A stretch of DNA of 64,000 nt from Chytridium lagenaria (lineage: Eukaryota > Chytridiomycota > Chytridiomycetes > Chytridiales > Chytridiaceae), in assembly GCA_025449115.1 (NCBI GenBank), contig JAHLKC010000086.1, positions 1-64,000 of the forward strand, read 5' to 3'. Numbering within the stretch: position 1 is the first letter of the stretch; every line of letters begins with the position of its first letter. Below are positions 1 to 20,393 of the stretch, piece by piece. The notes beneath the pieces were generated by a model, which saw only the letters and a list, made by a program, of their open reading frames with translations, was not told the origin of the DNA and did no database searches. A program made the position numbers and the translations under genes.

Positions 1-1327
1 CCATGTACCCGAAGGCCTACAACAGGCAGATATCTGTGAAGAGAGCAGCAAACAACAGAGCCCTCAAGAGGGTAGAGACAGCCTTATTCAACATCACCTC
101 CTACCTTCGTGGCAACCAGGACAAGATTTCTGGCATCAGGGTAGAGATACGGTACGGTGGGGGCAGCCTGAGTGATTGTGTGCTGGTGCCAATAGGATCA
201 GGATCTGGTCCATGCAAGATTTGTCTTTTCTTGGCTTTGAGTTTCATCATATCCGACTGATGCATACATTCAAGATATCACCATGGCCTTGCAGAGCTCT
301 ACAGCGCAGCAGCTTTTCAATGGAAGAAACCATGAAGAACCATCAGAACGAAAGCAGCAAATGTTGAAGGCTCTCATTAACAATTTTGGGTGGAATGACA
401 ATGACACTCTGAGTACCAGGAGACGATTTCAGCAATTCACTGAGAGGCACTTTGGCTCCACAGAGTTTCTTCCTGGAGATGTCATTCCAATGGATCAGGA
501 GTTCCCTGCTGGGGAAGATGGAGATATTTGCAGGCAGGCTAAGGACTTGGAGTTGGATGCAGTAAAGACACTAGTACTAAGATACAAGTCGCGTTTCAGA
601 TGCAGGGATTGTGGTGGAAAGCTTCATAGTGTTGGATGTAAGATCTCCTGCCATTCTCTCCATTTTCTATTTTTTCATCTGTATTAATCCTTCTTTTTGA
701 ACAGCTGAAAGGCAGTTGAGATTTAGGTGTGCAAACAGGTCAACATGCGCAAGGCCCAACTATGCCCTCAAGAGGATTGTGGATGAGCTCTTAGAAGACA
801 CTGCCTTTGCATCTTTGCGTCAGCCACTTCAAGGACATTCACCTTCACTTTCACCTTCACCTCAAGAACATTCACCTTCACCTCCACCCATGCCTCGCAG
901 ATCACATCAACTTCAACCACCACCATCTCCCCATCACCTTAATCACCATCCACCCCAATCTAGTCCAACCAATTCAGTTCATCATCCATTACCTCCACAA
1001 CGATCTCATTCTCCACCCAGGGCAACCATCCATGATTCTACCATCTATGTGGTGGATGACAGTGACGATGTAGATATGGATGTGCAAGGTCATGATTCCG
1101 ATTCCGACTTGAGTGTGGTTGTTGGCCCTCCCATGAAAACATTTGGGAAACAGTTTGGTGGTCATAGCCATCCTGCTACCCAGATAGTGCTTATTGACGA
1201 TTCTGATTCAGACCACTTGAGTGATATTGCAGGCCCATCCTTTGATCTTGTTGGTGAAGGTGATGCAACTACAACCAAACCAGGTACCCGCATTAGAGGT
1301 TTCAGGGGACGGTTTGGACACAAATAG
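1..1327 (+). CDS. Subtelomeric Cys-knuckle family protein, copy A (5' end outside window)
   Basis: Function unknown. The 5' end lies beyond the window. The first part (to about 200) contains KAYN and GIRVEIR stretches that resemble KAYN and YRIEARL in the copy at 5258-7178. Reading then moves to another frame from about 241 (unresolved intron or indel). A Cys knuckle CRDC follows (about 600-612), then a phase-1 intron (GTAAGA at about 639, acceptor CAG at about 705). The second half reads LRFRCANRSTC followed by an ALKRIVDELLEDTAFASL helix. The tail is Ser/Pro/His-rich, then acidic, with two motifs shaped like SUMO-interacting motifs: IYVVDDSDD and QIVLIDDSDSD. The family and its shared intron are seen directly; zinc binding and SUMO binding are inferred. 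Confidence 0.6.
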
Positions 1328-1479
1328 TCAGCACAACTTATGTCATAACTTTTAAAATTAATAAACTTTATAAAATCTATTCTATCTTTTGTCTTGACTT
1401 GATCTGTTCAATATTGAAACCCGTTTACAGAGAACACTTTCACTCCATAAGGGAGATACATAATACCCACACTTTGTAC
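1328..1479. other. Spacer between copy A and tandem array
   Basis: AT-rich spacer downstream of the copy A stop codon. It contains AATAAA-like sequence soon after the stop (about 1360), which could serve as a polyadenylation signal. No coding potential is seen. Confidence 0.4.
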
Positions 1480-2220
1480 CACACCAATCTGATACCAGTG
1501 TATTCTTCTCAATATCGAAATCTATACGTTTGCTGAGTTTCACAAACATCTGATCACCCAATCTAACTCAATTTTCCCAATAGGTTTCCGTTTACTAAGT
1601 CACATGCACTCGGGAAGTGAGTACCTTAATACAGTCTACTTGTATCACCCCAATCTGAGACTTGCATATTGTTAGGTGATCCAATATCTATATGTGTGCA
1701 AAGTATCACAAAGTTCTGACCATTCATTCTCACTCAAAATCACCTCAACATTCCCGCAATTATGTATACCATCCCGATTCCTAAGTACTCTGGCACGCGG
1801 GGAGGGTGGACCTTAATAGAGTCACTTTGTACCACCCTATTCTGAGATGCATATCGTTCTGGTATCGATATCTATGCTTGTGCAAAGTATCAGCAAATTC
1901 TGACCATTTGTTTCCATGTTATACAGACTTAAAGTTTGAAATCTCCCGATTTTTTCGGAAAATCCGCCAATCATATAGTAAACATAAATTCCATGCTACC
2001 ATTTGAGTCATACAATATATTTTGACACTGTTTCTGACATCTCTGCAAAATTTGAGCAAGATCTGACCATTAGATCTTGCCGCAGGACAGCGACAAGTCT
2101 ACTAATTATTACTTAAGAAAATTTGAAACTTCCGACGCTTGTACGTCGCTCAATTTTGACAATTTGATTGAGGGTTAAACCGGTTTCGAGATCGTCGCAA
2201 CAGGGCTACATTTCATATTA

Positions 2221-2279
2221 AGTCAAGTCACAAAAAAAATCGATAACCCTGTGGGGACCCCCATGTACCCTAACCCTAA
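2221..2279 (+). repeat. Element terminus with telomeric motif, site 1
   Basis: Shared terminus: AAGTCA, an A-run, GTGGGGACCC, CATGTA, then CCCTAACCCTAA at 2268-2279. This is the end of the first array unit before the 114-bp duplication. Confidence 0.85.
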
Positions 2280-2334
2280 GATGGAGGTTAAACCGGTTTC
2301 GAGATCTTCGCAACAAGGGCTACATTTCATATTA

Positions 2335-2394
2335 AGTCAAGTCACACAAAAAAATCGATAACCCTGTGGGGACCCCCATGTACCCTAACCCTAA
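2335..2394 (+). repeat. Element terminus with telomeric motif, site 2
   Basis: Second copy of the terminus, 114 bp after the first, ending in CCCTAACCCTAA at 2383-2394 and followed by the start of the next 824-bp unit. Confidence 0.85.
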
Positions 2395-3158
2395 ATGCCC
2401 GTATAACGTTAACACCCCAATCTGATACCAGTGTAATCTTCTCAATATTGAAATCTATACTTTTGCTGAGTTTCACACACATCTGACCACCCAATCTAAC
2501 TCAATTTGCCCAATAGGTTTCCGTTTACTAAGTCACATGCACTCGGGAAGTGAGTACCTTAATACAGTCCACTTGTATCACCCCAATCTGAGACTTGCAT
2601 ATTGTTCGTTGATCTAATATCTATATGTGTGCAAAGTATCACAAAGTTCTGACCATTCATTCTCACTCAAAATCACCTCAACATTCCCGCATTTATGTAT
2701 ACCATCCCGATTCCTAAGTACTCTGGCACGCGGGGAGGGTGGACCTTAATAGAGTCACTTTGTACCACACTATTCTGAGTAGTGCATATCGTTTTTGGTA
2801 TCGATATCTATGCTTGTGCAAAGTATCAGCAAATTCTGACCATTTGTTTCCATGTTATACAGACTTAAAGTTTGAAATCTCCCGATTTTGACGGAAAATC
2901 CGCCAAACATATAGTAAACATAAATTCCATGATACCCATTTGAGTCATACAATATACATTTGACACTGTTTCTGACATCTCTGCAAAATTTGAGCAAGAT
3001 CTGACCATTAGATCTTGCCGCAGGAGGCGACAAGTCTACTAATTATACTTAAGAAAATTTGAAACTTCCGACGCTTGTACGTCGCTCAATTTTGACAATT
3101 TGATTGAGGGTTAAACCGGTTTCGAGATCTTCGCAACAAGGGCTACATTTCATATTAA

Positions 3159-3217
3159 GTCAAGTCACACAAAAAAATCGATAACCCTGTGGGGACCCCC
3201 ATGTACCCTAACCCTAA
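3159..3217 (+). repeat. Element terminus with telomeric motif, site 3
   Basis: Third copy of the terminus, 824 bp after site 2, ending in CCCTAACCCTAA at 3206-3217. Confidence 0.85.
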
Positions 3218-3983
3218 ATGCCCGTATAACGTTAACACCCCAATCTGATACCAGTGTAATCTTCTCAATATTGAAATCTATACTTTTGCTGAGTTTCACA
3301 CACATCTGACCACCCAATCTAACTCAATTTGCCCAATAGGTTTCCGTTTACTAAGTCACATGCACTCGGGAAGTGAGTACCTTAATACAGTCCACTTGTA
3401 TCACCCCAATCTGAGACTTGCATATTGTTCGTTGATCTAATATCTATATGTGTGCAAAGTATCACAAAGTTCTGACCATTCATTCTCACTCAAAATCACC
3501 TCAACATTCCCGCATTTATGTATACCATCCCGATTCCTAAGTACTCTGGCACGCGGGGAGGGTGGACCTTAATAGAGTCACTTTGTACCACACTATTCTG
3601 AGTAGTGCATATCGTTTTTGGTATCGATATCTATGCTTGTGCAAAGTATCAGCAAATTCTGACCATTTGTTTCCATGTTATACAGACTTAAAGTTTGAAA
3701 TCTCCCGATTTTGACGGAAAATCCGCCAAACATATAGTAAACATAAATTCCATGATACCCATTTGAGTCATACAATATACATTTGACAGTGTTTCTGACA
3801 TCTCTGCAAAATTTGAGCAAGATCTGACCATTAGATCTTGCCGCAGGACGGCGACAAGTCTACTAATTAATACTTAAGAAAATTTGTAACTTCCGACGCT
3901 TGTACGTCGCTCAATTTTGACAATTTGATGGAGGGTTAAACCGGTTTCGAGATCTTCGCAACAAGGGCTACATTTCATATTAA

Positions 3984-4036
3984 GTCAAGTCACACAAAAA
4001 AATCGATAACCCTGTGGGGACCCTCATGTACCCTAA
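3984..4036 (+). repeat. Element terminus with single telomeric repeat, site 4
   Basis: Fourth copy, 825 bp after site 3. Only one CCCTAA (4031-4036) remains before unique sequence. It marks the left edge of the 6.2-kb gene-bearing segment. Confidence 0.8.
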
Positions 4037-4057
4037 GCTCCAATAGTCCTTGAGGGC

Positions 4058-5012
4058 ATGGCGGGGAAGGATGAAGCTCCAATAGTTGTTGAGGACGAGG
4101 ACGACGACGACGATGTTCAAGTCCTAAGCATTCAGATAAAGGAGCCAGAGTCTGAAAAGGGAGAAACCACTGGGTTTAAGGCCCTCGAACGACTTGTCTT
4201 GGAGATAAAGAATTTGAAGTCGGTGAAGGCGTCGGCGAAGGCGGCTGTTAATGAAAAAATGTGGAATGAAAGTCTATTCCATTTTGGCGACTTCTTAGAC
4301 TTGATTCAGATTAATCTTCATAATGAGGTTTGTACTGTGTACTAATGCATTTTATTGAGGCCAATACTAAAATTATTTTACTTTTCAATACACAGGTAAT
4401 GAGCCGTCAAAACAGCGGAAACGGAAGTCAAGTTCCGAGCTAATCGCGCCTACGCCCAAAAAGGCCGCCACACTTAAAGATTCTGACATTGATTCGGAAT
4501 CAGAATCATCGTCAGAATCTTTATCTCCGAGACTGCAAGACCTGAAGATTCCCTGCCCGTTCGTTCAAAAACCCTCCAAGCCATCCAAGACTCACAACCC
4601 GGTCGGTGCAAAACCCAACGTAATTGAGTATTCCGAAGCATCGTCTGATGATGGATCTCCTCGAATCAGGCTTTCGGCTTCTAACCCTGTCCAAAAGAGG
4701 AAATATTCTGGGCAAGCGAGTTCTCAGGCTGCTCGAAAAAGGGGGCGACTGGTTAAAGATTCTTCTGACGGGGAAGATTCTTCTGATGGGGACAGCGGCA
4801 CGGGTCACGAAAGTACTTTGACGGAAAATTCCGAAGAAGATGAACCAGATGAACCAGCTGCGAGGAACCCTGAAACGGAAGATACGGGGAAGACTTCAAA
4901 AACAGCTGAGGCGGACACTGAGGGGGACACTGAAATGGAAGATGCGGGGAGTACTTCCAAAGGAGCCGAGGGCCGGCAAGGAGGCTTGAACCAAGGCTCT
5001 AACGGAATATAA
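4058..5012 (+). CDS. Acidic, low-complexity nuclear-type protein with SIM-like motif
   Basis: I do not recognise this gene. The ATG lies 21 bp after the last telomeric repeat. Exon 1 begins MAGKDEAPIVVEDEDDDDD, a hydrophobic run followed by acid typical of SUMO-interacting motifs, and later has a helical segment (LERLVLEIKNLK). A short intron lies at about 4328-4402. Either GAG/GTTTGT with acceptor ATGAG/CCG, or a donor a few bases later with the upstream CACAG acceptor, restores one frame. Exon 2 opens with a basic KQRKRK stretch (possible nuclear localisation signal) and continues as a Ser/Asp/Glu-rich tail with repeated SSDGEDSSDGD-type blocks. No enzymatic domain is visible. It could be a chromatin or SUMO-pathway interactor, but that is inference. 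Confidence 0.6.
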
Positions 5013-5063
5013 ATCTCATAAAATGTAGCATGAATGTATTAAAATTTTAGTACTTTTTAGTCT

Positions 5064-5090
5064 ACTACCAAACACAACCTGTTCGGTAGT
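5064..5090. repeat. ACTACCGAAC/GTTCGGTAGT palindrome, copy 1
   Basis: Arms ACTACCAAAC and GTTCGGTAGT with a short loop. One mismatch from a perfect inverted repeat. It lies just downstream of the acidic-protein stop codon. Confidence 0.8.
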
Positions 5091-5211
5091 TACACAAATT
5101 GTAGAAGCATGTATCGGACATCTCAGGACATGTAACACGAAAGTATCAAATAAGATATATAATGTAACAGCATTAGAAAAAATTTAGCCTTTTTAGTTTG
5201 AAAATATTTTG

Positions 5212-5238
5212 ACTACCGAACAAAATCTGTTCGGTAGT
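5212..5238. repeat. ACTACCGAAC/GTTCGGTAGT palindrome, copy 2
   Basis: Perfect 10-bp arms ACTACCGAAC and GTTCGGTAGT with a 7-bp loop. It sits immediately upstream of the copy B coding region and could be a protein-binding site or an RNA hairpin. Confidence 0.85.
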
Positions 5239-5257
5239 TACAAACATTCTTTGAAGC

Positions 5258-7178
5258 ATGCATCCATCATTTCATCCATATATATCCGGGTTTGAAAACG
5301 GCTCAAGCCCTTCAGCAAACACGCAGTATGTGATTCCTGATGGTGAATCTGACGATGATTTGAGCGAAGGTATTCTCTCGCAGTTTGATATTGATTTCCT
5401 TGCAATTACGCTTTCATGCGACACAATCTCGTCTCTGTTCCCTGATGACTGCGTTGGCCTTTGCAAAACCTGGCCAAAGCATAACGACACTGGTTTTGCC
5501 CCTGACGCCCTTGTCGTTACATCCTTTCCCTTCATTTTAAAAATCAAAGTCATCTGTACGATTGCGCGGAACTGAAGATCGCATTGGCAGCCAAATTACA
5601 CCAGTTATTCTTCATATCTGTTTGTACATCACCATCTTACGTCAAAACAACGCAGCGTTCGCGCTTTAATACGTCCTTTATAACTGGCACGGAATTCATG
5701 GCACTACCGGATCTGTGCACCGCCATTAAGGCCCTCGGAATCAGCAAGATTCGTTTGGTGCAATTTGGGCAAAAATCGAAACTGAAGAACTTTCGCAACT
5801 TTCCTTTTCGTCTGGCATTGCCCTCAAGTGAAGATAACGGTGAAAATGACGGACCCAACATAGAAACATATGTTGATGTCGGCAAGTTTGTTCAAACGGA
5901 GTCAATCGCTCTTATCAACTGGGCACCTGTTTCCGACAACATTCAGAGCCATGTCGGGCAACTACAGGGTGTCAAAATCTTTCCTGTACTGGGTCCTGTG
6001 GGGGATGGGGCGGGATGGGTGCAGGCTAAATTTCGCAACACCTCATTTAAGGTGTACCCTCATTTGACGCACTCTGTGAAAGCCTACAATTCGAGTCTTG
6101 GATACAGTGCCCCAAAAAGCATCAAATCTTTGCGTGGGTACTCGGGAATATTTTTAGGCATGATGAAGGTTATGAAGCCTCACCTCTCCAGCTTTCACAT
6201 TATCGAATTGAAGCTCGACTCAAGGTTTCCTCACTAAGCAATTTGATGAGCCAAGTGCTGGAACTGCCTATCTGGTCATCCAATCAGCTTCGCCATCTGG
6301 GCATTACAATCAAAAGTGTTCCGACTGCACTGTATTTTCAACAGTTTGATGCGGCACTTCACAATGCAGGAAAAAACAGACTCTTTCAAGGTTTGCTTCA
6401 AATATCATAACTTTAATAACCCTTTTAATAGGTGACAATGGAGCGAAACCACGTGAAAACCAACTAGTTGGTTTACGATCTTTGCTGAACCTTGTGGGTA
6501 TCAACAAGGACTATTCACGAACACATTCAATGCCCTTCAAAAGCTTCTTTGCCAAATATTTTGGTGGATTTCAATTTTCTATCGGCGATGGCGGACTTGG
6601 TGTGTACCCAGACACAAATTGGGGCCGCCTGGCTAAAGAGGTAGAGATTGGTGACAGCAACGCACGAAAACAAATGGCAGAAATCTTGAGGTCACGATTG
6701 AAATGTCATACTTGCCAATCAAAGCTTACCACCAACCGTAAGACCATCTCTCATGTTAAATTTAACAACTGACTAAACAGATGAACCCAAGAATCGTCGA
6801 CTACGATGGCGATGCGCTGGCTGCAAATCAAGTTACACAATTGACAATGTCGTAGACTGTGCACTTCGACCCTTTTTGGCCTTAATATCCAAGGATCAAG
6901 GACGGGAACGTCATGGTTTGCCTGCAATCGATCATCTTTTCAACCCTCTCAGCGCGGAGTCAGCGCGTGTTTTCCGAACACGGTACATCCCTCATAATGT
7001 GTCACTTGTACACGTTAACCCATCACAAGGAGAGAGATATGCCGAGAGTGATGCTGAGAGCGATGCCAATCCCGGTCCGGGTCCAGATACGTACTGGAAA
7101 GTAACTCGGAACAACATCCGCATCAGAGACTACAGCATTTCAAGGCCTATTATTGACATCAGCCGTCGCCAGGAATAG
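5258..7178 (+). CDS. Subtelomeric Cys-knuckle family protein, copy B (fullest member)
   Basis: Function unknown. This is the most complete family member here. The first segment has an acidic patch (GESDDDLSEG). A frame change near 5521-5545 leads into HLYDCAELKIALAAKLHQLF. A globular part of about 250 residues follows, containing LPDLCTAIKALGISKIRLVQF, NWAPVSDNIQSHVGQLQGVK and HSVKAYN; another frame change comes near 6200 (to YRIEARLKVSSL). A phase-1 intron lies at about 6393-6432, then LLNLVGINKDY and KSFFAKYFGGFQF. The first Cys knuckle CHTC is followed by a phase-1 intron (about 6738-6780) and the second knuckle CAGC, then a short tail ending in a basic stretch. The two frame changes may be indels or missed introns. 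No transposase or polymerase motif could be recognised. Confidence 0.6.
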
Positions 7179-7376
7179 GTTTTTTCCAATTCTGCGATAC
7201 GTGTTGGTCATGGATTATCATCGAGGGATGGTTCTAGCATAAGGTAGTTATTAGATTTCATAAAAATTTAACTACCGAACTCGTGTTGTTGGTAGTAAAA
7301 ATTTTAACTACCGAACTCATGTTGTTGGTAGTAAAAATTTTCTTTATTTAATATCAAGTTCTGCGTAACGTTTAAC
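7179..7376. other. Spacer between copies B and C
   Basis: AT-rich spacer carrying two tandem palindromes (7271-7332). No coding potential is seen. Confidence 0.5.
7271..7332. repeat. Palindrome copies 3 and 4 in a 36-bp direct repeat
   Basis: Two head-to-tail units about 36 bp apart (7271-7296 and 7307-7332). Each reads ACTACCGAAC then GTTGTTGGTAGT, so the right arm is slightly degenerate. They lie downstream of the copy B stop. Confidence 0.8.
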
Positions 7377-9103
7377 CAACTTTTAGACGTGCTACTCCTT
7401 ATTTGCGTTTAATCAATCGCATTGAGTCATCCGACAAGAATGCGATGATGATATTCAAAAATCTTCTCAGCCGCACGGGAATCCTTTGTACGCACTGCAA
7501 AAGGGCTTCAAACTTCCAAGATATCAGTATGTATTTACTTAAGAATTGATTTGAACCGTCTATAGGTGAAACAAAACCAACACTACGAATACGGTTAAAA
7601 TGCGGCCAATGCAAGAAGACCTACAGAAATGAAGAAGTTTTCAATGACCTTCTCGCACCTTTGATATCTGTCATTCGCAAAATTATATCCCAAAATCTTG
7701 AGGACACATTTCTTCCGCGAATCCCTAATGAGACGTATTCAGCTGCCACCCGACTTCATGCTCCTACACCATTTCTTTCAGCCTCGTAAATGGAGCTAGC
7801 AAAAAATACTAGTCCACCGTCACATCAAGCTTCTTACAGCAGGAGCGCTTTTAATGACAGTGAGGCTGAAATTGTGGTTGATGATAACTTTGTGCAACTA
7901 CCGAACTGGATCTGTTCGGTAGGTAAATTTTTCCTTTCCCACATTACTAAATTTTTAAGGACATTGAGGCTGAATCCAATCTGGTTGTTAATAATAGCTT
8001 TGTGCAACTACCGAACTCGATCTGTTCGGTAGGTAAATTTTTTTTTTGTAACATCTAAATTTTTCAAGGACATTGAGGCTGAATCCTTTGTGCAACTACC
8101 GAACTCGATCTGTTCGGTAGGTATTGATGAATGTGTTGAAGAGAGTAGTGAAGCATGTGTTGAATTTGTTGATGAGAGTAGTGACGAAGGTAAATCTAAA
8201 ACCATTAGATAACATCTAAAGCATTGTTAGAACCGCTCCTCCGACACAGCTTTTTGAAACTAGTGGGAATTCCGGATACTGTGCGAGACATTATATGCGC
8301 AATCTATTTTTACAACGTCAGCAACGATGTCAGCTACTCCCAAAAGGGGTTTATCCACCTCACGAACAACCTGCTGCTCCCAACCGTGAAGCCCATACAT
8401 CCTTCATCACTCAGTTCTCTGTGGAGGCAGGTACACCATTTGACTCGGGTATGGGTATGTCGGCGGCGGATTCAACCTTTGACTCGGGTATGGATGCGTT
8501 GGCAGTGGATGAGAGTTTGAGTTGGGTATGGATGACTCGGGTATGGATGCGTTGGCAGTGGATGAGAGTTTTGAGTTGGGTATGGATACGTTGGCGGTGG
8601 ATACAAGTTCTGAGTTGGGGTATGGGATACGTTGGGCAGTGGGATACTAGTTTTGAGTTGGGTATGGATACTTTGGCGGCAGATACAACCTTTAACTCGG
8701 GTGCGGATATGTTGGCGGTGGATACAATCTTTGACTCAGGTATGGATACACTGGCAGAACCAATTAAGTATCAACCTAACAATGTTCAATCTATGTAGCT
8801 GAACTCGAAGACGGCACCGATCCTCTACTCGTTAATGAGTATCAAACTAACAATGTTCAATCTGATGTAGCTGATATTGATGAACACCAAGACGGCACCG
8901 ATCCCCTACTCGTTAATCCCCGACTTCTTACGGAGCAAGTGACCAATAATCCCCAACTGGTTGATGAGCAACTGATCAATATGGACATTGACATTCCACT
9001 ACTCGATACTGCCCCTACATCTGTTACAAACATACCATCCCCTATCATGGAGTTTGATCTCGACGGACTTTTTGACTGCAACGATGACCTCAATCTTTTT
9101 TGA
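7377..9103 (+). CDS. Subtelomeric Cys-knuckle family protein, copy C (5' incomplete, exon duplications)
   Basis: This is the third member of the family. It opens after an in-frame stop or a possible splice acceptor near 7376 and lacks the long N-terminal part of copy B, so it is 5' truncated or its upstream exons are unseen. Knuckle 1 is LCTHC; a phase-1 intron (about 7529-7565) precedes knuckle 2, KCGQC. Another intron (about 7789-7840) removes an apparent stop and leads to DSEAEIVVDDNF. Two further exon-intron modules repeat this stretch. Next come tandem FDSGMDxLAxD repeats with several frame breaks. The end has two DGTDPLLVN repeats and closes in EFDLDGLFDCNDDLNLF, an acidic/hydrophobic sequence like a transcription activation tail. 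A G missing near 8795 breaks the frame relative to the second DGTDPLLVN repeat. It could be a decaying gene or an active gene with sequencing errors. Confidence 0.5.
7857..8121 (+). repeat. Tandem exon-intron modules containing palindrome copies 5-7
   Basis: Three head-to-tail modules begin at about 7857, 7960 and 8069 (about 103-110 bp). Each has an exon piece (EAE... FVQLPNxICSVG) whose 3' end is the palindrome (7897-7923, 8007-8033, 8095-8121). The first two are followed by GTAAATTT and a 40-50-bp AT-rich intron ending in AAG. The third palindrome runs on into exon sequence instead of an intron. Confidence 0.75.
8438..8760 (+). repeat. Minisatellite coding FDSGMDxLAxD repeats
   Basis: Repeats of about 42 bp (TTTGACTCGGGTATGGAT... 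GTTGGC... GTGGAT) within copy C. In the open frame they read FDSGMDxLAxD, an acidic Gly/Ser/Asp repeat. In the middle (about 8518-8650) single-base shifts turn them into a Trp-rich out-of-frame translation, which shows recent indels or consensus errors. Confidence 0.8.
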
Positions 9104-9538
9104 ACATTTTGACATTTCGTATAACTTGTTTTTTGATTCAGAATAAATAAATTTTGTTTTTAAAATTGTCAAAGTTAAATTCGAACTTCAAAGTTAAATT
9201 CAAAAAATTTCGAAGTCAATAAATTTTTCAAAAAAAAAATTAATCAGACTAACCAGCTCGGTGCTAACCCTAACCTAACTTTAAGGCTAATGGTAGCTCC
9301 CTCAAAACACGTAACCCAGGGGTGGCCCAAACGTTTTTCTAGTAGTATTTTCGATGCTCTATCCGATGCACCTTTAACCCAGGCATGTTTATAAGTGCAA
9401 AAGTTTGGCCAGTCCCTAAGTGTAACCCGTAACCGCTCAGAAAAATTACGCCCTCGGGAATAGTAAAACTGTATAGCATAACTTCGAGGCAAAGTATTGA
9501 AAAATATTTAAGGTGGTCTTACCGAACGCTAAAATGCG
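9104..9538. other. Noncoding, AT-rich with a degenerate telomeric motif
   Basis: Noncoding region downstream of copy C. It contains CTAACCCTAACCTAAC at about 9273-9288, a degenerate telomeric motif in the same orientation as the others. No gene is supported. Confidence 0.5.
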
Positions 9539-10065
9539 TTATCTGTAGCTGTTCAATCTGAGCATGATTTATCCGGCCGTTTTTTTTCGGATTTACGTTC
9601 AAGTCACCGACTGATATACGATTAACCCTTCGGGAGGCCAATGTCATTGAAAACATAATTAATAAGGTGGTACAGGGGGTTACAAACGCTCAGAATGCTG
9701 TTATCTTAGCTGTGCAAATTTGACATGATTTATCCGGCCGTTTTTTTTGGAATTTACGTTTCAAGTCACTGAACTTGATATACGGATTTCTTTCGGAGGT
9801 CAAAGCATTAAAACATAGTTAATGTGACGGTTACCAAGTCCAGAAATGCTGTATCTATAGCTGTGCAAATCTGAGCATGATTTATCCGGCCGTTTTTTCG
9901 GAATTTACGTTCAAGTCACCGACTGATATAGGATTCACCCTTCGGAAGGCCAATGTCATTGAAAACATAATTAATAAGGTGGTACAACAGGTTATCGAAA
10001 CGCTCAGAAATGCTGTTATCTATAGCTGTGCAACATTTGAACAGGATTTATCCGGCCGTTTTTGC
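9539..10065 (+). repeat. Imperfect tandem repeat, about 150-165 bp, about 3.5 copies
   Basis: The segment GATTTATCCGGCCGTTTT recurs near 9564, 9727, 9878 and 10046. Each is preceded by an imperfect copy of TAGCTGTGCAA...GAGCATG; the first three are followed by copies of TTTACGTT...AAGTCAC and AATTAATA. Copies differ by small indels. Confidence 0.85.
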
Positions 10066-10082
10066 GTTACATTGGATTAAAG

Positions 10083-10259
10083 TCGACTAATTTTTAATTA
10101 ATAAATTTTTTGAACTTTGAATGCTCATACGGCAGTCAATTTTGCGAATGTCGACCGGGTAAAAAGCATTCCAGCATCGTGACGGTATGTACGACGTTTC
10201 TTACTAAGTCACCAAAAAAAAACCCCTCGGGGACCCCTATGTACCCTAACCCTAACCCT
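10083..10259 (+). repeat. Element terminus with telomeric motif, site 5 (right boundary)
   Basis: This stretch of about 170 bp aligns loosely with 2094-2279 (GTCxACTAATT..., CAATTTTG, AAGTCAC, an A-run, CGGGGACCC, ATGTA) and ends in CCCTAACCCTAACCCT (10244-10259). It repeats the end of the array units and marks where repeat-rich sequence meets a gene. Confidence 0.75.
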
Positions 10260-10270
10260 CCCTGAATCTT

Positions 10271-11293
10271 TCAGGCTTTGTTCGGCAGCATGATTGCCAA
10301 ATTGATCTGCGCGTGACCCTCTTCCACAGCCGTAAGTATTGAATTCATCAAAGTCATTGAGCGATCAACGTTTCGCACATGAGATTCTAGTGAAGTTGGA
10401 TGCCGTCTCAACAAAGGAACAATCTGACGCATTGGTGGACCTTGAATTGCGGCTTCTTGCTGAGGGACCGGAAGACGTGAAATCTCGTTTGCCCAAATGG
10501 TCCACACAAAGTCGTGACGTCAAACGTATTGGAATGGAGAGTCTTTAGCCGTTCTGCAATTTCAGTTTGGATAGATTGTGCGGGGGCTCCGGCTCTGTCC
10601 ACGGCCTGTGGCTGCAAGCATTTTGTTTCGAATAAAGCGTATTGCGACGAAGTCTTCAAGTTCTGTCCGTATTGAAAAATGTATAGAGTGATGGGGCCAG
10701 GCTGTCCACGACCTCTAGGAGAACTCCAATTTTGAAGAATAGCTGTTGTCAAGGTAGCTAATAAATTGATTAGCGACGCGCATCACATCTCATAAAAGTA
10801 TTTAAATGATAATTAAAAACTCACTTAACGACGAGTCCAATGTAATCCCATAAGCAGGGCCAAACATAAAATATCGATTGCTCTTCTTGAATATTATGTA
10901 GTGATTAATATTCTCAATGGTTGGTGGTACGTCAATGCATGAGTACTTTGGTGGATCTGACTCATCAACCTCAGCAAGCCCACTAATATGAGATCTGTAT
11001 CGTTGCCACAAGAGCTCAGAAAGGTTGTCCAGTCCAGAACAGGTCACACTCCAGTTTTCGAGGATGTTGTATGGCTCTTTTGGTTGTAGTATTTCTTGAC
11101 AGTAGGTACTAGCAGAAAACTGAAGAGAGTTTCCGCGCGTTGGGAAGTTGAGCGTTTGATTGGACAGACTGATCAAACTACATAACGGATGCAGGAATAA
11201 CTGTCTGATCAGACTGCTCTTGTGATGCTGCATTCCCATCGTCACCATGGAGTCCCTCGTCATGATCTCTTCCATGCCGTTGATGCTGTCCAT
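10271..11293 (-). CDS. Hypothetical protein adjoining the subtelomeric boundary
   Basis: I do not recognise this gene. On the minus strand the ATG at 11293 starts a frame of about 155 codons. A GTGAGT donor (near 10825) and a TTATTAG acceptor (near 10757, with a GCTAATC branch-like site) join it precisely in frame to an exon reading TLTTAILQNWSSPRGRG. A frame change near 10505 is then needed to continue to a stop at 10271 (VWTIWANEISRLPV onward), leaving about 300 residues. No signal peptide or membrane segment is evident. The stop codon is only 12 bp from the telomeric motif at 10244-10259, so the 3' end might have been replaced by the subtelomeric block. Confidence 0.5.
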
Positions 11294-11997
11294 GCCGATA
11301 AGGCTTACCCTTAAATAGTATAATGTTTAATTATTTATTATTTCTTAATAGACATTCTAAGACAGTCACGTGCCTTCATCCAATCATATGCACTGTTTGG
11401 AGTGCGATATTCACTGCGACGATGAGTGCGATATCGCTCTGCGACGAACCGTTTGTACCACCGAATCCAATTTGAGATGAAAGCAGCAATATTTAATACT
11501 TTATTTATATATTTATCATTACTTCCTTAATACTAATTTATTTTTTAATTTTGTTTATTTATTCAAATACTTCATCGCGGTGTCCGCACATACAGCGCGT
11601 TTAGGAGCGCTTTGACCTTCATTTATTTTTATTATTACTTTATTGTTCTTTCTTATCTTATATAATAATATTAATAATATTTAAATTTGTATTAATATAC
11701 ATTTTCTTCATCCTCTTTATTATTACATGATTATGTTTTGTATGTTTTGTTTTTAAATCGTCGAATAAAAAATCCGTCAACTTTTAAAGAGTAAATAATT
11801 AGTCTTTCCTTGACGCTTTGTTTCCTTTACTTCTTTGCGGATTCTATTATTGCTTTTGCCTTTACTGTTTCGTTATTCTGTTGAATATTAGTTGAAGACG
11901 TTTGTTTGTTTGTATGTGCGTTTAAACCTCTCACATACATTTCTTTTAACCTTTTTACTCCCGTCAATATTATTGTGGTATATATGTTAATAAAATA
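11294..11997. other. AT-rich intergenic region
   Basis: Strongly AT-rich, with runs of TTA/TAT and no open frame of note. It separates the hypothetical gene from the chromovirus fragment. No LTR boundary could be defined. Confidence 0.5.
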
Positions 11998-13620
11998 GCT
12001 AACCTTCTAACCCACAGGCCCTTATAACATTATACGATTATTGGTTGATGTTAATCGTACTATGAATGCACCGTTGGTGTTGATACAGACCAGAGAAGAT
12101 GTGGTGTCTCTAGTTGATAATATATTAGGTGCCGCCCACGAGAGTGTGAGCACTGAAGAATCTTCTACCGTAAAGAAGAAAAAGAGTAAACAAGATAGGC
12201 TCATAGAGGAGCATCTTGCTAAAGAACGTCAGAAGATCAGGGATTATGCTGACGAGTTACCTGCGCTGTTGAGTTATGCTAGCGCATTATTGTTGAGAGA
12301 AGAGCTTAAACGAAAAGAGAAAGCTATCTCTATGAAAAAGAATGATGAGTATCAATTCGAGATAGGAGACCGGGTGTGGTTCTCTATGCCATTAAGAACG
12401 GATAAACAAGGTTGAGAAGATTCTCAGATTAAGAAGTTCCAGTTTAGATGGTCTGGGCCAATGAGAGTCATCGCGAGAAGCGAAGACTTCAATAGATACA
12501 CTGTAGTAGAAGTATTACCAGACGGTCGACTATTATCTAGGCAGGCTAATGCTGCTAGATTGAGACCTTATAATAATATACCACCTAACGATACTGCCGA
12601 TAAAGCAGCGAAAGGTGTTATAGATGATGATTTTGCTCAAGAGATTGAATTATGGAAGAAGTTTGCCGTACTTCAGCGTAGACCAAAGATGAAGGTCGCT
12701 GAAGGTGTAAATAGAGAGCTATTCCAGAGATTTGATAGTGATGTTGCTGAAGGTCAATATGATGACCCAGAGTTTTATGTCGAAAAACTAGAAGACCATG
12801 CTCTTGAAGATGGAGAGTATGAGTATAAAGTGAAATGGTTAGGTCAAGGCCCATACCATAATACTTGGTTATAGAACGTGAGATTCCAGTCGTTATCGTG
12901 AGGATTACTGGAATGATGTTGCTAAGAAAAATGTTAAAGAATACTTTAAACGATTGGCTCATGTTGAGAAACATGGCATACCAAAACGAGCAAAACCAGT
13001 TACTCGTTATACAGATGCTACAGATAACGTCGGTTTTCCCGACGTGTCAGTTAGTGATAATAAGTCTACAACAGGTGTAGATGATTTGAATAATGAAGAT
13101 ATTATCATAATGACGATTCATATGATGATGTGAATCCTGTAAAACTTGTTACTCGTCCCGTCATGGAACAAGAAGAGAGCAAAAGATGATGATATACCTT
13201 TAGCTTTAGAAGACTTCGTATTTACCACCCTATATTAGTGAAGAAGTCCTTATAGATATTTATGCTGATAAATAGTTAAAGACACTCGATAGATACGCCA
13301 TTATCAAGTGTGGGTGCATGTGAAGTTATTATAAAACCTCACCAAGAGGCATAAACGCGTCATATTTATTATAGTCGTTGTGCTTAGTTTATGTTTCCTT
13401 CATCCCCCGTTCTGTTGTTTTCCTCCCGCGGATTTATACTTTTCCGCATATGAGTTAGTCGGAGGTTTTTATTATGAACGGCGGCCACCGCGTCAGTGCG
13501 CGTGGTCGAGATGTGTGTTGTTTGTTGTTCCCCTATGTTGATAGTTGTTGTATTTATGTGTGTTTTTGGTGTTTATAATAAAGAAGAAGAAAGTTGAATA
13601 GATTTACGTTCACCCTCTGA
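11998..13620 (+). mobile_element. Degenerate Ty3/gypsy chromovirus 3' end (integrase C-terminus, chromodomain, LTR-like tail)
   Basis: The frame at about 12012-12874 encodes the C-terminal part of a gypsy integrase: a Lys/Glu-rich helix, then FEIGDRVWF, an in-frame TGA at 12413, then KKFQFRWSGPMRVIAR and ANAARLRPY. A chromodomain follows (FYVEKLEDH, YKVKWLGQGPYHNTWL) and continues after a frame change as SSRYREDYWNDVAKKNVKEY. Reverse transcriptase, RNase H and the integrase core are absent, so this is a 5'-truncated copy. The downstream 13280-13620 stretch, with AATAAAG near its end, is a plausible 3' LTR, but its ends are not defined. Confidence 0.75.
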
Positions 13621-14710
13621 AGACCTGGACTAGACCACTACACACCCCAGGCCTGGCCGCCTTTGGGCCAGCGCTATCTCTTTCTGTTTGAATATTCAAT
13701 ATTGTTGTTATGAGTTTTACCAGCGGGCGCTCAGGTAAGCGCGCCGCCGGGGGAGACTACACCTTGAACCAAGACATGAGTCTAAGAAGGCTTGAGCCCT
13801 GGATAGACGCCTCTGTGGCATGATTCCTTTGAAGGTTTGGGTAGTATAACCACCTCTGTTCTATTCTTGATGGCTATGACAGGCTATCTAGCTGCCTGTG
13901 AGTAGGAGAGCAACATAAGCAGGGCCCTAGGTAGATGAGATCAGATTAGAACATGTTAAAACGGCTTACTGCGGTGATTTTGAGGCTTGGTAAACTCCTA
14001 GGAGCGTGGATGGACTCCCTCCTTGAGCACTTTCCACCTAGGTATGTGTGATCCCCGACCTAGGTTCTTTTGTTATCGTTTTTTGTTTGTTTTTCCTGTT
14101 TATCATAGTAGAACTTGTTGGGAACAGTTAAGCTGTACAGCAAACAAAATCCTTGCCTCAGCAAAAGAGGAGTTGCGGGCACCTGCAGACTTGGAGAACG
14201 TCCAAGGATGAGTATGGCGCGACATAGTGATTTCTCTCTCCATGGTGCTCAAGGCTTGAACCATGGAGGGCCAAAGAGGGAAACTCACAGTGAAAATCCT
14301 CATTCAAAACGACGAAGAAACTCCAACCACAAGGAATATAGCGAAGTTATGCAAACGCAGTAATGTGATACCCACAAAGTCTTTATATATATTTGTTTTA
14401 AATGCATAACTTCAGTGACACCAACAATCACATTATTCAATCCCGCTGCTTCGCCACTAGTACATACATAAATAAAGATTTACATCATTTTTAAATCAGC
14501 TTGCAACACTCACCGTTAGTTCCCAACTGCGATCGAAAGGTATGCTAGGCTGTAGATAGTTATCATCCATTAGCATACAACGCAATCAGTCTTACCTAGA
14601 TCCGTCCTGTCCCTTCCCGTCTCTTCTTCCCTTTCCCCACCGATACCCAGTTGACCCCCCCCCCCCCCCCCCCCTTCACCTCCGAATTTTTGATTCTATA
14701 ATTTTTGATT
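13621..14710. other. Noncoding interval with long poly-C tract
   Basis: No gene supported. Small open frames at 14023-14363 have no recognisable domain. A run of about 26 C lies at 14656-14682. Some sequence may be retroelement debris between the two chromovirus fragments. Confidence 0.4.
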
Positions 14711-15175
14711 ACTTGCTGTGGTACAGTATGGTAAGGGGGCCTATTATTTCGTTCGTTGGAAGAATCTTGGTCCCGGAGAAGATTCCTGGGAACCGTATGA
14801 GAATTTTGACGACGTTCGCCTGCTTCGGGAATATCATTTGGCTAATCCCAAGCTTCGTGGTGCACCCACTTTCTCCTCTGACGCTGAGTCCTAGTTTCTT
14901 TGTTCCTTCTTTTTTTCGTTCTTTTCTTTTCTTTTCATTTTTTTTTTTTTTTTTTTCCTTCCTCGTTTCTTCGGTTCCTCACCTCTCAAGGGGGAAGGGG
15001 CGGTGACGTCATGGGATCCCTGACAAGGCCCCCGACATTCCCTATAAAAGCTGCTCAGAAACCTCTCATGTAATAAATACAACAATAAAAAGTTTGGGTT
15101 TTCACGCACTTCAGTCTCATTTTTATCGTAGGCCTCATAGGAGACTTCCGTCTTCAATCTCTTCTTTCATGAAAG
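14711..15175 (+). mobile_element. Second chromovirus relic: chromodomain end plus LTR-like sequence
   Basis: The frame ending at 14894 reads YYFVRWKNLGPGEDSWEP followed by LLREYH, the hallmark of the second half of a chromovirus chromodomain, ending in a stop after FSSDAES. It differs from the 12.8-kb copy, so it comes from another element. Nothing upstream of it is recognisable. Downstream are a T-rich tract, TATAAAAG at about 15041 and AATAAA at about 15074, as expected of an LTR promoter and polyadenylation region, but no terminal repeats could be paired. Confidence 0.65.
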
Positions 15176-15636
15176 GAATAATGAAACGTTCTTGACTGCG
15201 AGTTTGTTGGAAACCGCAATGACCACTTTTTTATTCTTATGTGACGAGAGGAAGTTTATACAATATGGATAAAGAGAGCATTTTGGCCTAAATAGGGAGC
15301 GTCGGCTTAAGTGCGGCTGATGTTCACTTATGGGAAGAGAAAAATCTACTTATCCACTAAGGAAATCAAAAGTCGTGCCCTTACGGGCTCCGTGACCGGT
15401 CAACATTCGCGCGGGAAACTCGCGTTATCCGGCAAGCGCGTTCTTAATGTTACTTTTCCAACTCTTTTCCAACAAGCACGAGTATAAATATCCGAGATAC
15501 TTCTTCCTCTTCACCTCACCTTCTCACTTGAGATACACTCTTTCATATAATAGACTCTGCTATTACTACTTATATCGGTGTTTATACTTCACGTCAGCTA
15601 CACACGCCAGTTGTCAACACATCCATCCACAACTCA
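15176..15636. other. Intergenic, probable promoter region of KCTD-like gene
   Basis: No coding feature. The last 200 bases are C/T-rich with CACA runs, as is common upstream of fungal start codons. Confidence 0.4.
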
Positions 15637-17345
15637 ATACCTACTACACAACTACTCTACTTACACACACATCACTTGATACATACAATGATGGCCTCCT
15701 CAGCTACCTATGATCAGCGTGTGGTCTTGAACGTCGGTGGGGTGCGCTTTGAGACCTTGCACAGGTAACCATCCATAACAACCCCATGCACTTTGCATCC
15801 CCATGGCAGCATACATCCCATTAAATAAACACCTTGATACTTATCTTCCGTCAACCTTCCCAATCCCCCATCCGTCGTCATCACAGCACTCTCCTGAACA
15901 TTCCAGATTCACTCCTTGGCCTCATGTTCTCGGATCGCAACTCCAACATATGCAAGCCAGACCCTGACGGTGTCTACTTTTTTGATCGCAACTCTGCCTG
16001 TTTTAGTGCCATCCTCGACGGTTACCGGTCAAATGGGACATTGTAAGTTGCTTCGTTCTTTCGTTGACTCCTCCACATCTACGCGTTCCTCCACCAGTGT
16101 CCTTATCATTTCAAAGCATCGCTTTAATCATGGCTTCTCTTCCTTAACCATAGATCTGTCCTCCAACTGTTGCAGAAAAGACCTTTCAACAAGAACTCGA
16201 CTTTTGGCAAATCCCTAGGAACGACCTTCAGTACTTCTCCTCCTCCATCCACTCCACAAGCCCGTCCAACCTTCTCTCCCCCTCTGACCGCAAAACACTG
16301 GAACGCACCCTCATGGTCATGGACAGAGCTAAATCCTGGGGTGACAATAATATTGTGGTCCACGTCGACCTTGATGGTAACATTTTGACGACGACCTGTG
16401 ATAAATACACACAAAAACTGTGGGGGACAGGGATTGGAGTCATCGTAGCAAGTGTGCTTGAAGAAGATGTACAGAAAAGAGAGGATGGGAATCGTCAAGT
16501 CGACTTGTTCGAGAAGGCATTGAGGGAACGCACTGGTTTGGGGAAGGTATTGAGCATCTCAGAGATTAGAAAGACGTTGACAGTTAGAAGACCCGCTGTC
16601 ATAGCTCCCTCAACCGATATGGAAGATGAAGTTGACGCTTCTCCACCAGCACCTGTCCAACCTTCTTACATTACTCACTGGGAATGCAATCTAGTTATCC
16701 CTTGAATTGTTCAACATCCTCCAGTTTTCTCTCGAGCACCCATCCTCGCATTTCCTCTCGAGCACTCTAATTAACAGTCGCATCATCTTCCTTCATATGA
16801 TTTAAATGTTTACATTCATCTATTTCGTTGACTCAAATAACCTTCTTTCGCACCTTCCCTACTCACGTGCCATTCGCTGTATTTTTGAGTTACATTCCCC
16901 TTTCCCCTTCTTACCTACCCCGTTGCAGACTGCACATGCGTATGAGACAATATCATCAACTGATGCTAAAACTAAAATAGTTTTCCTTCGTGAAGCTTTA
17001 CGCTGAATAAAGGAAATAATATATTCTCCAATCAGTTTTATTTTATTTTCATTCAATGCTAACTTACCAGTCCACATATACATAAGATTATTCGTTAGCA
17101 GAAAGATGGAGGCTATGACCACACGTAAAATTCGAACGTCAGTGAGCCCCTACTTTCAAATAATATCCGAAGGTCTCTGCGTGTTCATCCCACCCGGCAA
17201 TGCCAACACGTCGCCATATTCCCACTCCCATTGAGTATACTTGAATTCCATCACATACGCCGTTGACTGCAGTTTCTCATCAAATTCTGACCACAATGAA
17301 AAGCGCCGATCGACAAACCATAGTGACATGATGAGCTTCAGTTGA
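15637..17345 (+). repeat. Left arm of large inverted duplication
   Basis: The reverse complement of this arm matches 18650-20393. Near identity runs through the KCTD-like gene and its promoter. It continues through the 3' flank (16930-17000 pairs with 18950-19010), then weakens but stays recognisable to about 17300. For example, GTGTTCATCCCACC pairs with GGTGGGATGAATAC. Confidence 0.85.
15688..16705 (+). CDS. BTB/T1-type (KCTD-like) domain protein
   Basis: The protein probably acts as an oligomerising adaptor; known T1-domain proteins form tetramers or pentamers and often recruit Cullin-3 ligases. Exon 1 (15688-15764) encodes MMASSATYDQRVVLNVGGVRFETLH, with the diagnostic VxLNVGGxxFET start of a T1 domain. 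Exon 2 (15887-16042) reads LLNIPDSLLGLMF, then GVYFFDRNSACFSAILDGYR, matching the conserved FFDRdxxxFxxILdfYR block. Exon 3 starts near 16154 (PPTVAEKTFQQELDFWQIP); the exact acceptor is uncertain by one base. The remaining 150 or so residues are unrecognised. No membrane segments are seen, so it is not an ion channel. Two tandem ATGs make 15688 the natural start. Confidence 0.8.
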
Positions 17346-18649: not shown

Positions 18650-20393
18650 GTCTGATCGGCGTTATTTATAGTGGTCAGAGTTTGGCGAGAAACTGGTGAT
18701 GGAGTCGGGGAATATGGAGACGGATATGAAGATATGTTCGCATTGGTGGGATGAATACGTCGGGACCTTGCATGGATATTAAAAAGTAGTGGTTTAATAC
18801 GTTCGCGGGAGGGATATTTACGTGGTCGTTACAGCCTCCATCTGCTAATAGGTTTCGTAAGTTAGCATTGAATGAAAACACCTTAAAAATGATGACTAGG
18901 GAATACAGTATTTCTTTATCCAGCGTAAAGCTTTAATTAGAAAACTATTTTGATTTAGAATCAGTTGATGATATTGTCTCATACGCGTGTGCAGTCTGCA
19001 AGGGGGTGGTCTTAGTAACCAACAAGGGGGAAGGGATATGTGATTCAAAAACAAAACGAATGGCACGCAGTAGAGAAGGTGCGAAAGAAGTTATATAAAT
19101 CATAAAGAAACAGATGAATGTGGGCGATTAGATCAACATGGTTATGGTATTCGGTTGAGGTATGAAAGAAGAGGATGCGACTATGAATTAGAGTGCTCGA
19201 GAGAAAACGGGAGGATGGTTAAACAATTCAAGGGACAACTAGATTACATTCCCAGTGAGGAAATGTAAGAAGGTTGGACAGGTGGCGCAGGTGGAGGAGC
19301 GTCAACTCATCTTCCATAGCGGTTGAGGGAGGTACGACAGCGGGTCTTCTAACCGTCAGCGTCTTTTCTAATCTCTGAGATCCTCAACACCTTCCCCAAA
19401 CCAGTGCGTTCCCTCAATGCCTGTTCAAACACATCGACTCGACGATCCCCATCCTCTCTCGTCTGCGCATCCCCTTCAAGCACACTTGCTACGATGACTC
19501 CGATTTCTGACCACCACAGTTTCTGGCTGTTGCCCACACAGAGCGAGGGCTTCATGCCCGCAACGTTTGCCATCGAGGTCGACGAGGAACTCAATGTTGT
19601 TGAGACCCATGGATTGAGCGCTATCCATGATCATGAGGGTTCGTTCCAGTGTTTTGCGGTCAGAGGGGGAAAGAAGGTTGGACGGGCTTGTGGAGTGGAT
19701 GGAGGAAGAGGAGTCTTGAATGTCGTCCCTCGGAATTTGCCAAAAGTCGAGTTCTTGTTGAAAAGTCCTTTCTGCAACAGTTGGAGGACAGATCTATGGT
19801 TAACGAGAGAACTCATGATTAGTGATGCTTGGAGAAGATAAGGATTCATGGGTGGAGGAGCTGAATGCTTGGCATATCGCCTTTGACGATGATGACACCG
19901 TCAAACAACTTACGACGAACATCAGGCATCATGTGCCAAAAATAATCGCAGTTGTGGAGGAAATCACCGAAAGAAAGAAACCACTTACAAGGTCCCCATT
20001 TGACCGGTAACCGTCGAGGATGGCACTGAAGCAAGCAGAGTTGCGATCAAAAAGTAGACACCGTCAGGGTCTGGCTTGCATATATTTGAGTTGCGATCGA
20101 GAACATGAGGCCAAGGAGTGAATCTGGTATGTTCAGGAGAGTACTGTGATGACGGATGGGGGATTGTGAAGGTTGACGGAAGGTAAGTATCAGTGTTAAT
20201 TTGATGGGATGGATGCTGCCATGGGGATGCAAAGTGCATGGGATTGTTATGGATGGTTACCTGTGCAAGGTCTCAAAGCGCATCCACCGACGTTCAAGAC
20301 CACACGCTGATCTTCGGTAGCTGAGGAGGCCATCATTGTATGTACCAAGTGATGTGTGTGGAAGGAGAGTAGTTGTGTAGTGGGTATAGAGCA
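18650..20393 (-). repeat. Right arm of large inverted duplication
   Basis: Mirror copy of 15637-17345. The promoter and exon 1 portion (20220-20390) are nearly identical to the left arm, and similarity falls towards the centre. Confidence 0.85.
19228..20336 (-). pseudogene. Mirror copy of the KCTD-like gene, probably disrupted
   Basis: Reading on the minus strand from the paired ATGs at 20336, the copy repeats exon 1 but has GTCGGTGGATGCGC where the plus copy has GTCGGTGGGGTGCGC. This destroys the NVGGVRF frame. Exon 2 (SLLGLMF, PDPDGVYF) and the C-terminal block (IGVIVASVLEGDAQTRED, LRERTGLGKVLRISEIRK) are retained. A frame loss follows ISEIRK, and a stop lies at 19228. Introns match in position but are more diverged and longer. 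If the exon 1 difference is a consensus error, this would be a second working paralogue. Confidence 0.65.

What the first reader, a model, noticed from the sequence alone, without database searches (positions are those of the whole stretch)
2094..10259. Repeated element terminus that carries telomeric repeats, seen five times
Five copies of one terminus (AAGTCA, A-run, GGGGACCC, ATGTA) each run directly into one to two and a half CCCTAA repeats, always in the orientation expected at a left chromosome end. Four close 0.1-0.8-kb units and one closes a 6.2-kb gene-bearing segment. Y'-type elements in yeast are likewise separated by telomeric tracts; here the sequences are unrelated and the encoded genes are unfamiliar. 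This suggests a subtelomeric element that spreads by insertion into, or recombination at, telomeres.
Basis: partly seen in the sequence, partly recalled or inferred. Interest (0 to 1): 0.88.

Follow-up and report, generated by a model that had tools for sequence, protein, structure and literature searches.

The report
Stacked retroelement remnants at fungal telomeres
The repeated terminus is the fixed 3' end of short mobile elements that pile up, the same way round and cut short on the outer side, between the telomere and the genes of a chytrid fungus, most likely because new copies are attached to worn chromosome ends.

Summary
The five termini are real, and the telomere reading holds. The window starts at the end of contig C86 of a 41.9-Mb genome, which is Chytridium lagenaria judging by two named proteins on contig C249. 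The terminus recurs 87 times on 40 contigs, near contig ends and in one orientation. It is the fixed 3' end of a family (C) with freely variable 5' ends: 49 internal 5' ends of subfamily C1 fall in 39 groups, from 25 bp to 2.2 kb. All seven array-capped contig ends that I read run straight from the TTAGGG array into a 5'-truncated unit. Other families show the same layout: a Penelope-like reverse transcriptase (A), a gene-bearing element (B), a tail found after a LINE (E) and a short one (F). Two details of the finding are wrong: the gene-bearing segment is family B and ends at 9428, and the first terminus closes a gene-bearing unit of at least 2.26 kb. Best explanation: copies attached to worn chromosome ends by reverse transcription from the telomeric 3' end, capped by telomerase, then reshuffled by recombination. 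This works like telomeric PLEs and MoTeRs. No RT was found on B or C, which encode an orphan CxxC protein; what moves them is not shown.

The parts
1..2267 (+). Family C1 unit, cut at the contig edge. It begins with the tail CCATGTACCC of a further terminus, carries a gene (coding stretches about 11-637 and 705-1327; frame broken in this copy between about 185 and 240) and ends in the terminus at 2253-2267
638..704 (+). 67-nt spliceosomal-type intron (GTAAG...ACAG) between the two halves of the CxxC motif; kept in the 7 genome copies found to span it
2268..2279 (+). Interstitial telomeric tract CCCTAACCCTAA
2280..2382 (+). About 0.1-kb 5'-truncated C1 unit with terminus at 2368-2382
2383..2394 (+). 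Interstitial telomeric tract CCCTAACCCTAA
2395..2407 (+). 13-bp remnant of the family F 3' end (ATGCCCGTATAAC)
   Evidence: sequence; F 3' end defined
2408..3205 (+). 0.8-kb 5'-truncated C1 unit with terminus at 3191-3205
3206..3217 (+). Interstitial telomeric tract CCCTAACCCTAA
3218..3230 (+). 13-bp family F remnant, second copy
3231..4030 (+). 0.8-kb 5'-truncated C1 unit with terminus at 4016-4030
4031..4036 (+). Single CCCTAA
4037..9428 (+). Family B gene-bearing element, 5'-truncated inside an ORF; acidic ORFs 4037-5012, CxxC protein with introns 5255-7178, second CxxC ORF about 7438-7790, acidic ORFs 8220-9103; own 3' end ...CTAAGTGTAACCC. One frame is open over 386 aa in the C71 copy and broken in the window copy
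9429..10243 (+). Family C2 unit of about 0.8 kb (roughly 180-bp internal repeats, by eye), 5'-truncated, with terminus at 10229-10243
10244..10259 (+). Interstitial telomeric tract CCCTAACCCTAACCCT
10260..12028 (+). Family E unit, taken as 5'-truncated; its 3' end CTAACCCACAGGCCCTTATAAC lies at 12007-12028
12029..12874 (+). Fragment opening inside an ORF: end of a Ty3/gypsy-type pol with a chromodomain (Pfam Chromo 1.3e-06); most proximal piece examined

Best explanation
The terminus is the 3' end of a family of mobile elements that are copied onto chromosome ends. When a telomere is worn down, the exposed G-strand 3' end primes reverse transcription of an element RNA whose 3' end resembles the C-rich telomere strand (for example ...AUGUACCC). 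cDNA synthesis stops at a variable place, which gives the 5' truncation, and telomerase then adds TTAGGG to that new end. The next attachment leaves the old tract as an interstitial CCCTAA. Repeated cycles build a head-to-tail stack with 5' ends outward. Stacks are later duplicated or exchanged as blocks. Shown: fixed 3' end, variable 5' ends, one orientation, terminal location, telomere abutting truncated 5' ends, and several unrelated families with the same layout, including an RT-coding Penelope-like element in which no GIY-YIG domain was found. Inferred: RNA template, priming by the chromosome end, and mobilisation of families B and C (no RT found) in trans, most plausibly by the Penelope-like RT (family A).
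For: Orientation and place: of 87 termini, 84 lie within 20 kb of the contig end they face away from, 87 within 34 kb; on contigs C1-C174, 60 of 60 (C), 42 of 42 (E) and 31 of 31 (F) in one orientation. Fixed 3' end: 128 of 128 C1 blastn matches in the 28 fetched stretches are on one strand, and 67 of 73 non-overlapping ones reach the 3' end within 12 bp. Variable 5' end: 49 internal C1 5' ends in 39 groups more than 3 bp apart, 25 bp to 2.2 kb. Array-capped ends: 7 of 7 read abut a truncated unit. 3' ends resemble the telomere C-strand, clearly in C, B and A (ATGTACCC, GTGTAACCC, CACCTAACCC), weakly in E and F (TTATAAC, GTATAAC). Overlap with the tract at 19 junctions averages 1.16 nt against 0.33 for random cut points, the largest of 2000 simulations being 1.0. 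Family A lies at the ends of C3 and C137, 5' outward, with CCCTAA tracts; 3 of its 40 RT relatives carry GIY-YIG. For Athena PLEs 3' telomeric stretches and 5' truncation are read in this way (PMC3846280, PMC5537684, passages).
Against: No RT-coding element with the family C or B 3' end was seen in the stretches read. Introns are kept in every copy found that spans them (C1 7 of 7; B intron 1 in 6 of 6, intron 2 in 5 of 5), so a spliced mRNA was not the template; PLEs are known to keep introns, but so does copying at the DNA level. Some junctions are exact repeats (the 2229-bp and the 773-bp C1 cut 4 times each), which shows block duplication. Two C249 copies of B carry a copia insertion at the same place and differ in their 5' cut inside copia, which DNA copying also explains. 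Three of the 73 C1 matches (two on C61, one divergent copy on C56) end short of the 3' end without being cut by the fetched stretch. The 19 junctions are those of 52 where the tract reaches the next unit; the other 33 have other sequence between.
Confidence: 0.6

Rival explanations
1. Recombination only: the units are subtelomeric DNA copied between chromosome ends by break-induced replication at short CCCTAA tracts, with 5' cuts made by erosion and telomerase healing. No RNA step, as for Y' elements.
For: Shared multi-unit blocks: C86 and C334 carry the same series of cuts, and C331 repeats one unit three times. Introns retained. The copia/B composite is present twice on C249. D-loop and BIR amplification is documented for MoTeR arrays (PMC7367193 passages).
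Against: Many junctions have no telomere tract for strand invasion, yet the upstream unit still ends at ATGTA(CC) (39 of 79 termini are not followed by a full CCCTAA). BIR gives no reason for one fixed 3' end with 39 groups of C1 5' cuts, or for units of 15-25 bp. Unrelated families share the layout, including one that encodes an RT.
Confidence: 0.25
2. The LINE whose 3' end carries the E signature (or another endonuclease-bearing LINE) nicks telomeric DNA and mobilises all families by target-primed insertion, as MoTeR, FoTeR or TRAS/SART do.
For: The RVT_1 ORF of L041 ends about 0.4 kb before the E 3' end; LINE matches on C40 and C155 are likewise followed by an E 3' end within 0.5-0.7 kb. 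The E 3' end has 50 genome matches.
Against: Comparing the lists, only these three LINE loci have an E 3' end just downstream; most of the 79 LINE matches do not. LINE fragments occur in both orientations, also near contig ends. The C/B 3' ends share no sequence with E beyond telomere-like letters (by eye). The ORF has a C-x2-C-x9-H-x3-C motif but no RHD/N of the REL endonuclease. Its N-terminus was not available, so an APE domain was not tested.
Confidence: 0.12
3. Families B and C are RT-independent: their CxxC protein itself brings element DNA or RNA to the chromosome end, perhaps using host telomerase.
For: The protein seems kept under selection (dN 0.38 and 0.37 against dS 2.2 and 2.8, near saturation, C1 against C56), its coding matches lie near contig ends or on small subtelomeric contigs, and no RT with their 3' end was seen.
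Against: No enzymatic domain found; the fold prediction was uninformative (pLDDT 32). A fixed 3' end with variable 5' ends is the signature of reverse transcription.
Confidence: 0.08

Closest known systems
Endonuclease-deficient telomeric Penelope-like elements (Athena; Coprina recalled) and Terminons
   Same: Largely confined to chromosome ends, 5'-truncated, telomeric stretch at the 3' end, intron retention in PLEs, extra ORFs on Terminons; such PLEs are already known from fungi (PMC3846280, PMC5537684, PMC5408684, passages read). Family A here is such an element by location and RT relatives.
   Different: No PLE RT was found on B, C or F; E is seen after a LINE. Several families with different 3' ends are mixed in one stack. 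The extra protein is an orphan and sits on separate elements.
MoTeR1/MoTeR2 of Magnaporthe oryzae and FoTeRs of Fusarium oxysporum
   Same: Head-to-tail stacks with the 5' end toward the terminus, TTAGGG tracts between units, many truncated copies, a partner without the RT region but with an unrelated sequence (MoTeR2), LTR elements inserted, block amplification (PMC7367193, PMC12857005, passages read).
   Different: Those are LINEs with a REL endonuclease. MoTeR2 shares both ends with MoTeR1; here B and C share neither end with any RT element seen. Another phylum, and no sequence relation was shown.
Yeast Y' elements
   Same: Subtelomeric blocks separated by telomeric tracts and exchanged by recombination (recalled).
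   Different: Y' elements carry a helicase (recalled) and are not 5'-truncated series with one fixed 3' end; no helicase domain was found in the proteins scanned here.
HeT-A/TART/TAHRE of Drosophila
   Same: Copies added to chromosome ends by retrotransposition (review PMC5537684, passages; 3' anchoring and 5' truncation recalled).
   Different: In Drosophila the elements are the telomere; here TTAGGG arrays cap the 7 array-bearing ends read.

Membership tests
EN-deficient telomeric PLE (family A) | Penelope-type reverse transcriptase | tested here: met
   40 relatives at E<=1e-3, best 39% identity, 3 of 40 with GIY-YIG; letters LPKIHK, RPIV, YIDD present (PLE motifs as recalled). Pfam RVT_1 itself was not reached, and no tree was made.
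EN-deficient telomeric PLE (family A) | No GIY-YIG endonuclease | tested here: met
   No GIY-YIG match up to E 10 in the 930-aa frame
EN-deficient telomeric PLE (family A) | Copies at chromosome ends, 5' outward, telomeric stretch at the 3' end | tested here: met
   All 5 RT matches lie near the ends of C3 and C137; CCTAACCC tracts at the 3' ends. These two contig ends carry no terminal array in what I read.
EN-deficient telomeric PLE (families B and C) | Encodes a PLE RT | tested here: not met
   No RT domain in the B and C ORFs scanned. The B copies read are 5'-truncated, so an RT farther 5' is not excluded.
MoTeR/FoTeR (LINE with REL endonuclease) | REL endonuclease (CCHC plus RHD/N) | tested here: not met
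   E-LINE ORF: C-x2-C-x9-H-x3-C present, no RHD/N anywhere in 731 aa
MoTeR/FoTeR | 5' end toward the terminus, units separated by TTAGGG tracts | tested here: met
   Orientation; a full CCCTAA after 40 of 79 termini
TRAS/SART | APE endonuclease specific for telomeric repeats | not testable with these tools
Y' element | Helicase ORF and ARS in a conserved block | tested here: not met
   No helicase domain in the B, C1 or A proteins scanned; ARS not tested

The most novel reading that the evidence does not exclude
Families B and C are a new class of RT-less telomere parasite. They spread only through a telomere-like RNA 3' end that lets any RT able to extend a chromosome end, perhaps telomerase itself, copy them, and their conserved CxxC protein helps at the chromosome end. 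Any transcript that ends in a telomere-like sequence could then be captured, and the chytrid subtelomere is a growing archive of such captures.
Probability: 0.15. Interest if true: 0.85.

Novelty: new variant of a known kind. Interest (0 to 1): 0.6.

Why it matters
It brings chromosome-end retroelements to a chytrid. In the held open-access library a search for Chytridium lagenaria with telomer* found 0 papers, and one for Penelope-like, chytrid and reverse transcriptase found 1, by its title on another subject and not read; subscription papers are mostly missing there. Several unrelated families seem to converge on telomere-like 3' ends. If each unit is one event, the stacks record successive telomere losses and repairs that could be read from sequence. 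The intron-bearing, gene-carrying families without an RT make a direct test possible of whether a PLE RT or telomerase can move other RNAs to chromosome ends.

Tried and rejected
Helitron or other DNA transposon: terminal inverted repeats and target-site duplications were not looked for systematically; set aside because copies have one fixed and one freely variable end. Ribozyme or known RNA at the ends: Rfam gave no match at E<=1 in window 1-14000, and in 13 loci only sub-gathering matches, mostly miRNA precursors, several on long palindromes. A conserved 3' hairpin: MFE no better than shuffles for the 5 ends folded (C1, C2, C3, B, E; z 0.64 to 0.98); A and F were not folded. Protein identity: Pfam and NCBIfam gave no credible match for the CxxC proteins and the protein search found relatives only on contigs of this genome (it needs shared 5-letter words, so distant relatives can be missed). 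The PDB sequence search was of the family A RT only and was empty. Structure prediction failed, so no fold search was made. I first thought that the PLE shared the family C terminus; it does not (on C3 a separate C2 unit of about 90 bp follows it).
Full report
WHERE IT IS. The window is bases 1-64000 of contig C86 (174,978 bp) of a 41,932,456-bp, 356-contig genome, so the finding lies at a contig end. The genome is most likely Chytridium lagenaria (Chytridiomycota): two relatives of the window's protein, P0043 and P0044, bear that name and lie on a contig of 29,612 bp, the length of C249. The telomere repeat is TTAGGG: perfect arrays lie at contig ends.

OBSERVATION. All five termini are present as described, in one orientation, with 1 to about 2.7 CCCTAA repeats. 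Two details are wrong. The first closes a gene-bearing unit of at least 2.26 kb. The fifth closes a separate unit of about 0.8 kb (9429-10243), because the gene-bearing segment 4037-9428 has its own 3' end, CTAAGTGTAACCC, which on C249 runs into CCCTAA-like tracts twice.

GENOME-WIDE TEST. GGGGACCCNNATGTACCCTAA with up to 2 mismatches has 87 matches (45 +, 42 -; reversed control 1) on 40 contigs. Measured to the contig end they face away from, 56 of 87 lie within 5 kb, 71 within 10 kb, 84 within 20 kb and 87 within 34 kb. Only C221 (34.0 kb) lies more than 21.3 kb in, and it is nearer to the other end. On contigs C1-C174 (70.7 kb or more, taking contigs as numbered by length) all 60 have the predicted orientation. 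The 3' ends of two other families behave alike: E 42 of 42 (50 in all) and F 31 of 31 (41 in all; tally). For E and F the distance to the right contig end is not known for every contig. On small contigs orientation says little. The pattern contains CCCTAA, so copies without a tract are under-counted: the C2 unit at the right end of C9, for example, is not in the list.

ANATOMY. I read 28 contig stretches (and loci; listed); they were chosen because hits lay there. The C1 reference from C249 matches them 128 times, all on one strand. Of 73 non-overlapping matches 67 reach its 3' end within 12 bp. Of the other 6, three are cut by the end of the fetched stretch, two lie on C61 and one is a divergent copy (64%) on C56. 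Aligning each of 79 termini to the best of three references gives 49 internal C1 5' ends in 39 groups more than 3 bp apart (25 bp to 2.2 kb), 10 for C2 in 8 groups and 10 for C3 in 8 groups; a few of the C2 and C3 values may be limits of my references. Units can be tiny: about 20 bp on C52 and 15 bp on C70. Of 79 termini, 40 are followed by CCCTAA, 19 by CCC, 13 by CC, 2 by C and 5 by none. At 7 of 7 array-capped ends read (C9, C15, C26, C52, C70, C71, C249) the array runs straight into a 5'-truncated unit: C2, C1, C3, C3, C1, B, and copia inside B. Among array-capped ends known only by position, C27 and C42 carry C and E hits and C93 an F hit near the end; C107 has no C, E or F hit. The listing of array matches was cut after 100 of 170, so other array-capped ends exist.

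OTHER FAMILIES. A: a 3.89-kb element with open frames of 930 and 842 aa, in tandem at the end of C137 and once on C3, with 3' end CCCCACCTAACCC. Its RT has 40 relatives, best 39% identity; 3 of 40 carry GIY-YIG, none was found in A. B: the window's 4037-9428, also on C71, C249 (twice), C129 and C103. E: in L041 its 3' end follows a LINE ORF (RVT_1 5.5e-19), and LINE matches on C40 and C155 are followed by an E 3' end; most other LINE matches are not. F: a short tail, of which 13-bp remnants lie at 2395 and 3218 in the window. Signature 3' ends in the fetched stretches are in one orientation, 112 against 1 (2 mismatches or errors were allowed, so a few may be chance, the single reverse one among them). 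The 3' ends resemble the telomere C-strand, clearly in A, B and C and weakly in E and F, as if selected for annealing to a TTAGGG 3' overhang (inference).

THE GENES. B and C1 encode related proteins (32% identity; C1 against C56 60% and 52%) that end in a CxxC-type motif split by an intron; 'zinc ribbon' is my reading by eye, no profile matches it. dN is 0.38 and 0.37 with dS near saturation (2.2, 2.8), so the protein is probably under purifying selection. No relative outside this genome was found. Introns are kept in every copy found that spans them; a spliced form was sought for C1 only.

MECHANISM. A fixed 3' end, free 5' ends, terminal location and telomere caps on cut 5' ends are the published signature of endonuclease-deficient Penelope-like elements, explained by priming from exposed chromosome ends and later telomere addition (PMC3846280 and PMC5537684, passages). 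PLEs can also move intron-bearing genes in trans (PMC3846280 passages), which fits B and C. MoTeRs show the same layout, with a partner lacking the RT region, LTR insertions and block amplification (PMC7367193 passages), and FoTeRs lie 5' outward with TAACCC at the 3' end (PMC12857005 passages). Overlap with the tract (1.16 nt against 0.33 expected, at the 19 of 52 junctions where the tract reaches the next unit) fits telomere seeding. Block duplication is also present (C334, C331, C249). Which RT moves B and C is not shown: family A is my first choice, the LINE second, telomerase third.

LIMITS. Contig ends carry many small indels, so broken frames may be assembly errors. The original PNAS 2007 paper on telomeric PLEs is not held; its content is known to me only through the passages cited and recall.

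Noticed in passing
whole genome G000: A 45-base telomere array pattern has 0 forward and 170 reverse matches: arrays sit at right contig ends only. Left ends carry the elements but no such arrays, probably an assembly asymmetry.
   Followed up: no
C249 (L079-L081), 270-16026 from the contig end: Two family B copies carry a Ty1/copia insertion at the same place, and each is 5'-truncated at a different point inside the copia.
   Followed up: partly
C71 (L077+L078), about 4960-9771 from the contig end: A 4.8-kb insertion with LTR-like edges (by eye) interrupts a family B copy.
   Followed up: no
window 16154-16705 (+) and 19476-19793 (-): An inverted pair of similar ORFs on opposite strands a few kb apart, proximal to the stack.
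   Followed up: no
L044, L040, L042 (C26, C97, C334): Units with long GAGACCGCGGTCTC-centred palindromes that give sub-gathering miRNA-precursor matches in Rfam; GGTTCGAACC motifs like a tRNA B box (recalled) occur in the C26 and C97 units.
   Followed up: no
L041 about 7.8-9.0 kb (C331): Coding-like tandem repeats (VYG...RRYTSSCGYIL, by eye) next to the stack.
   Followed up: no
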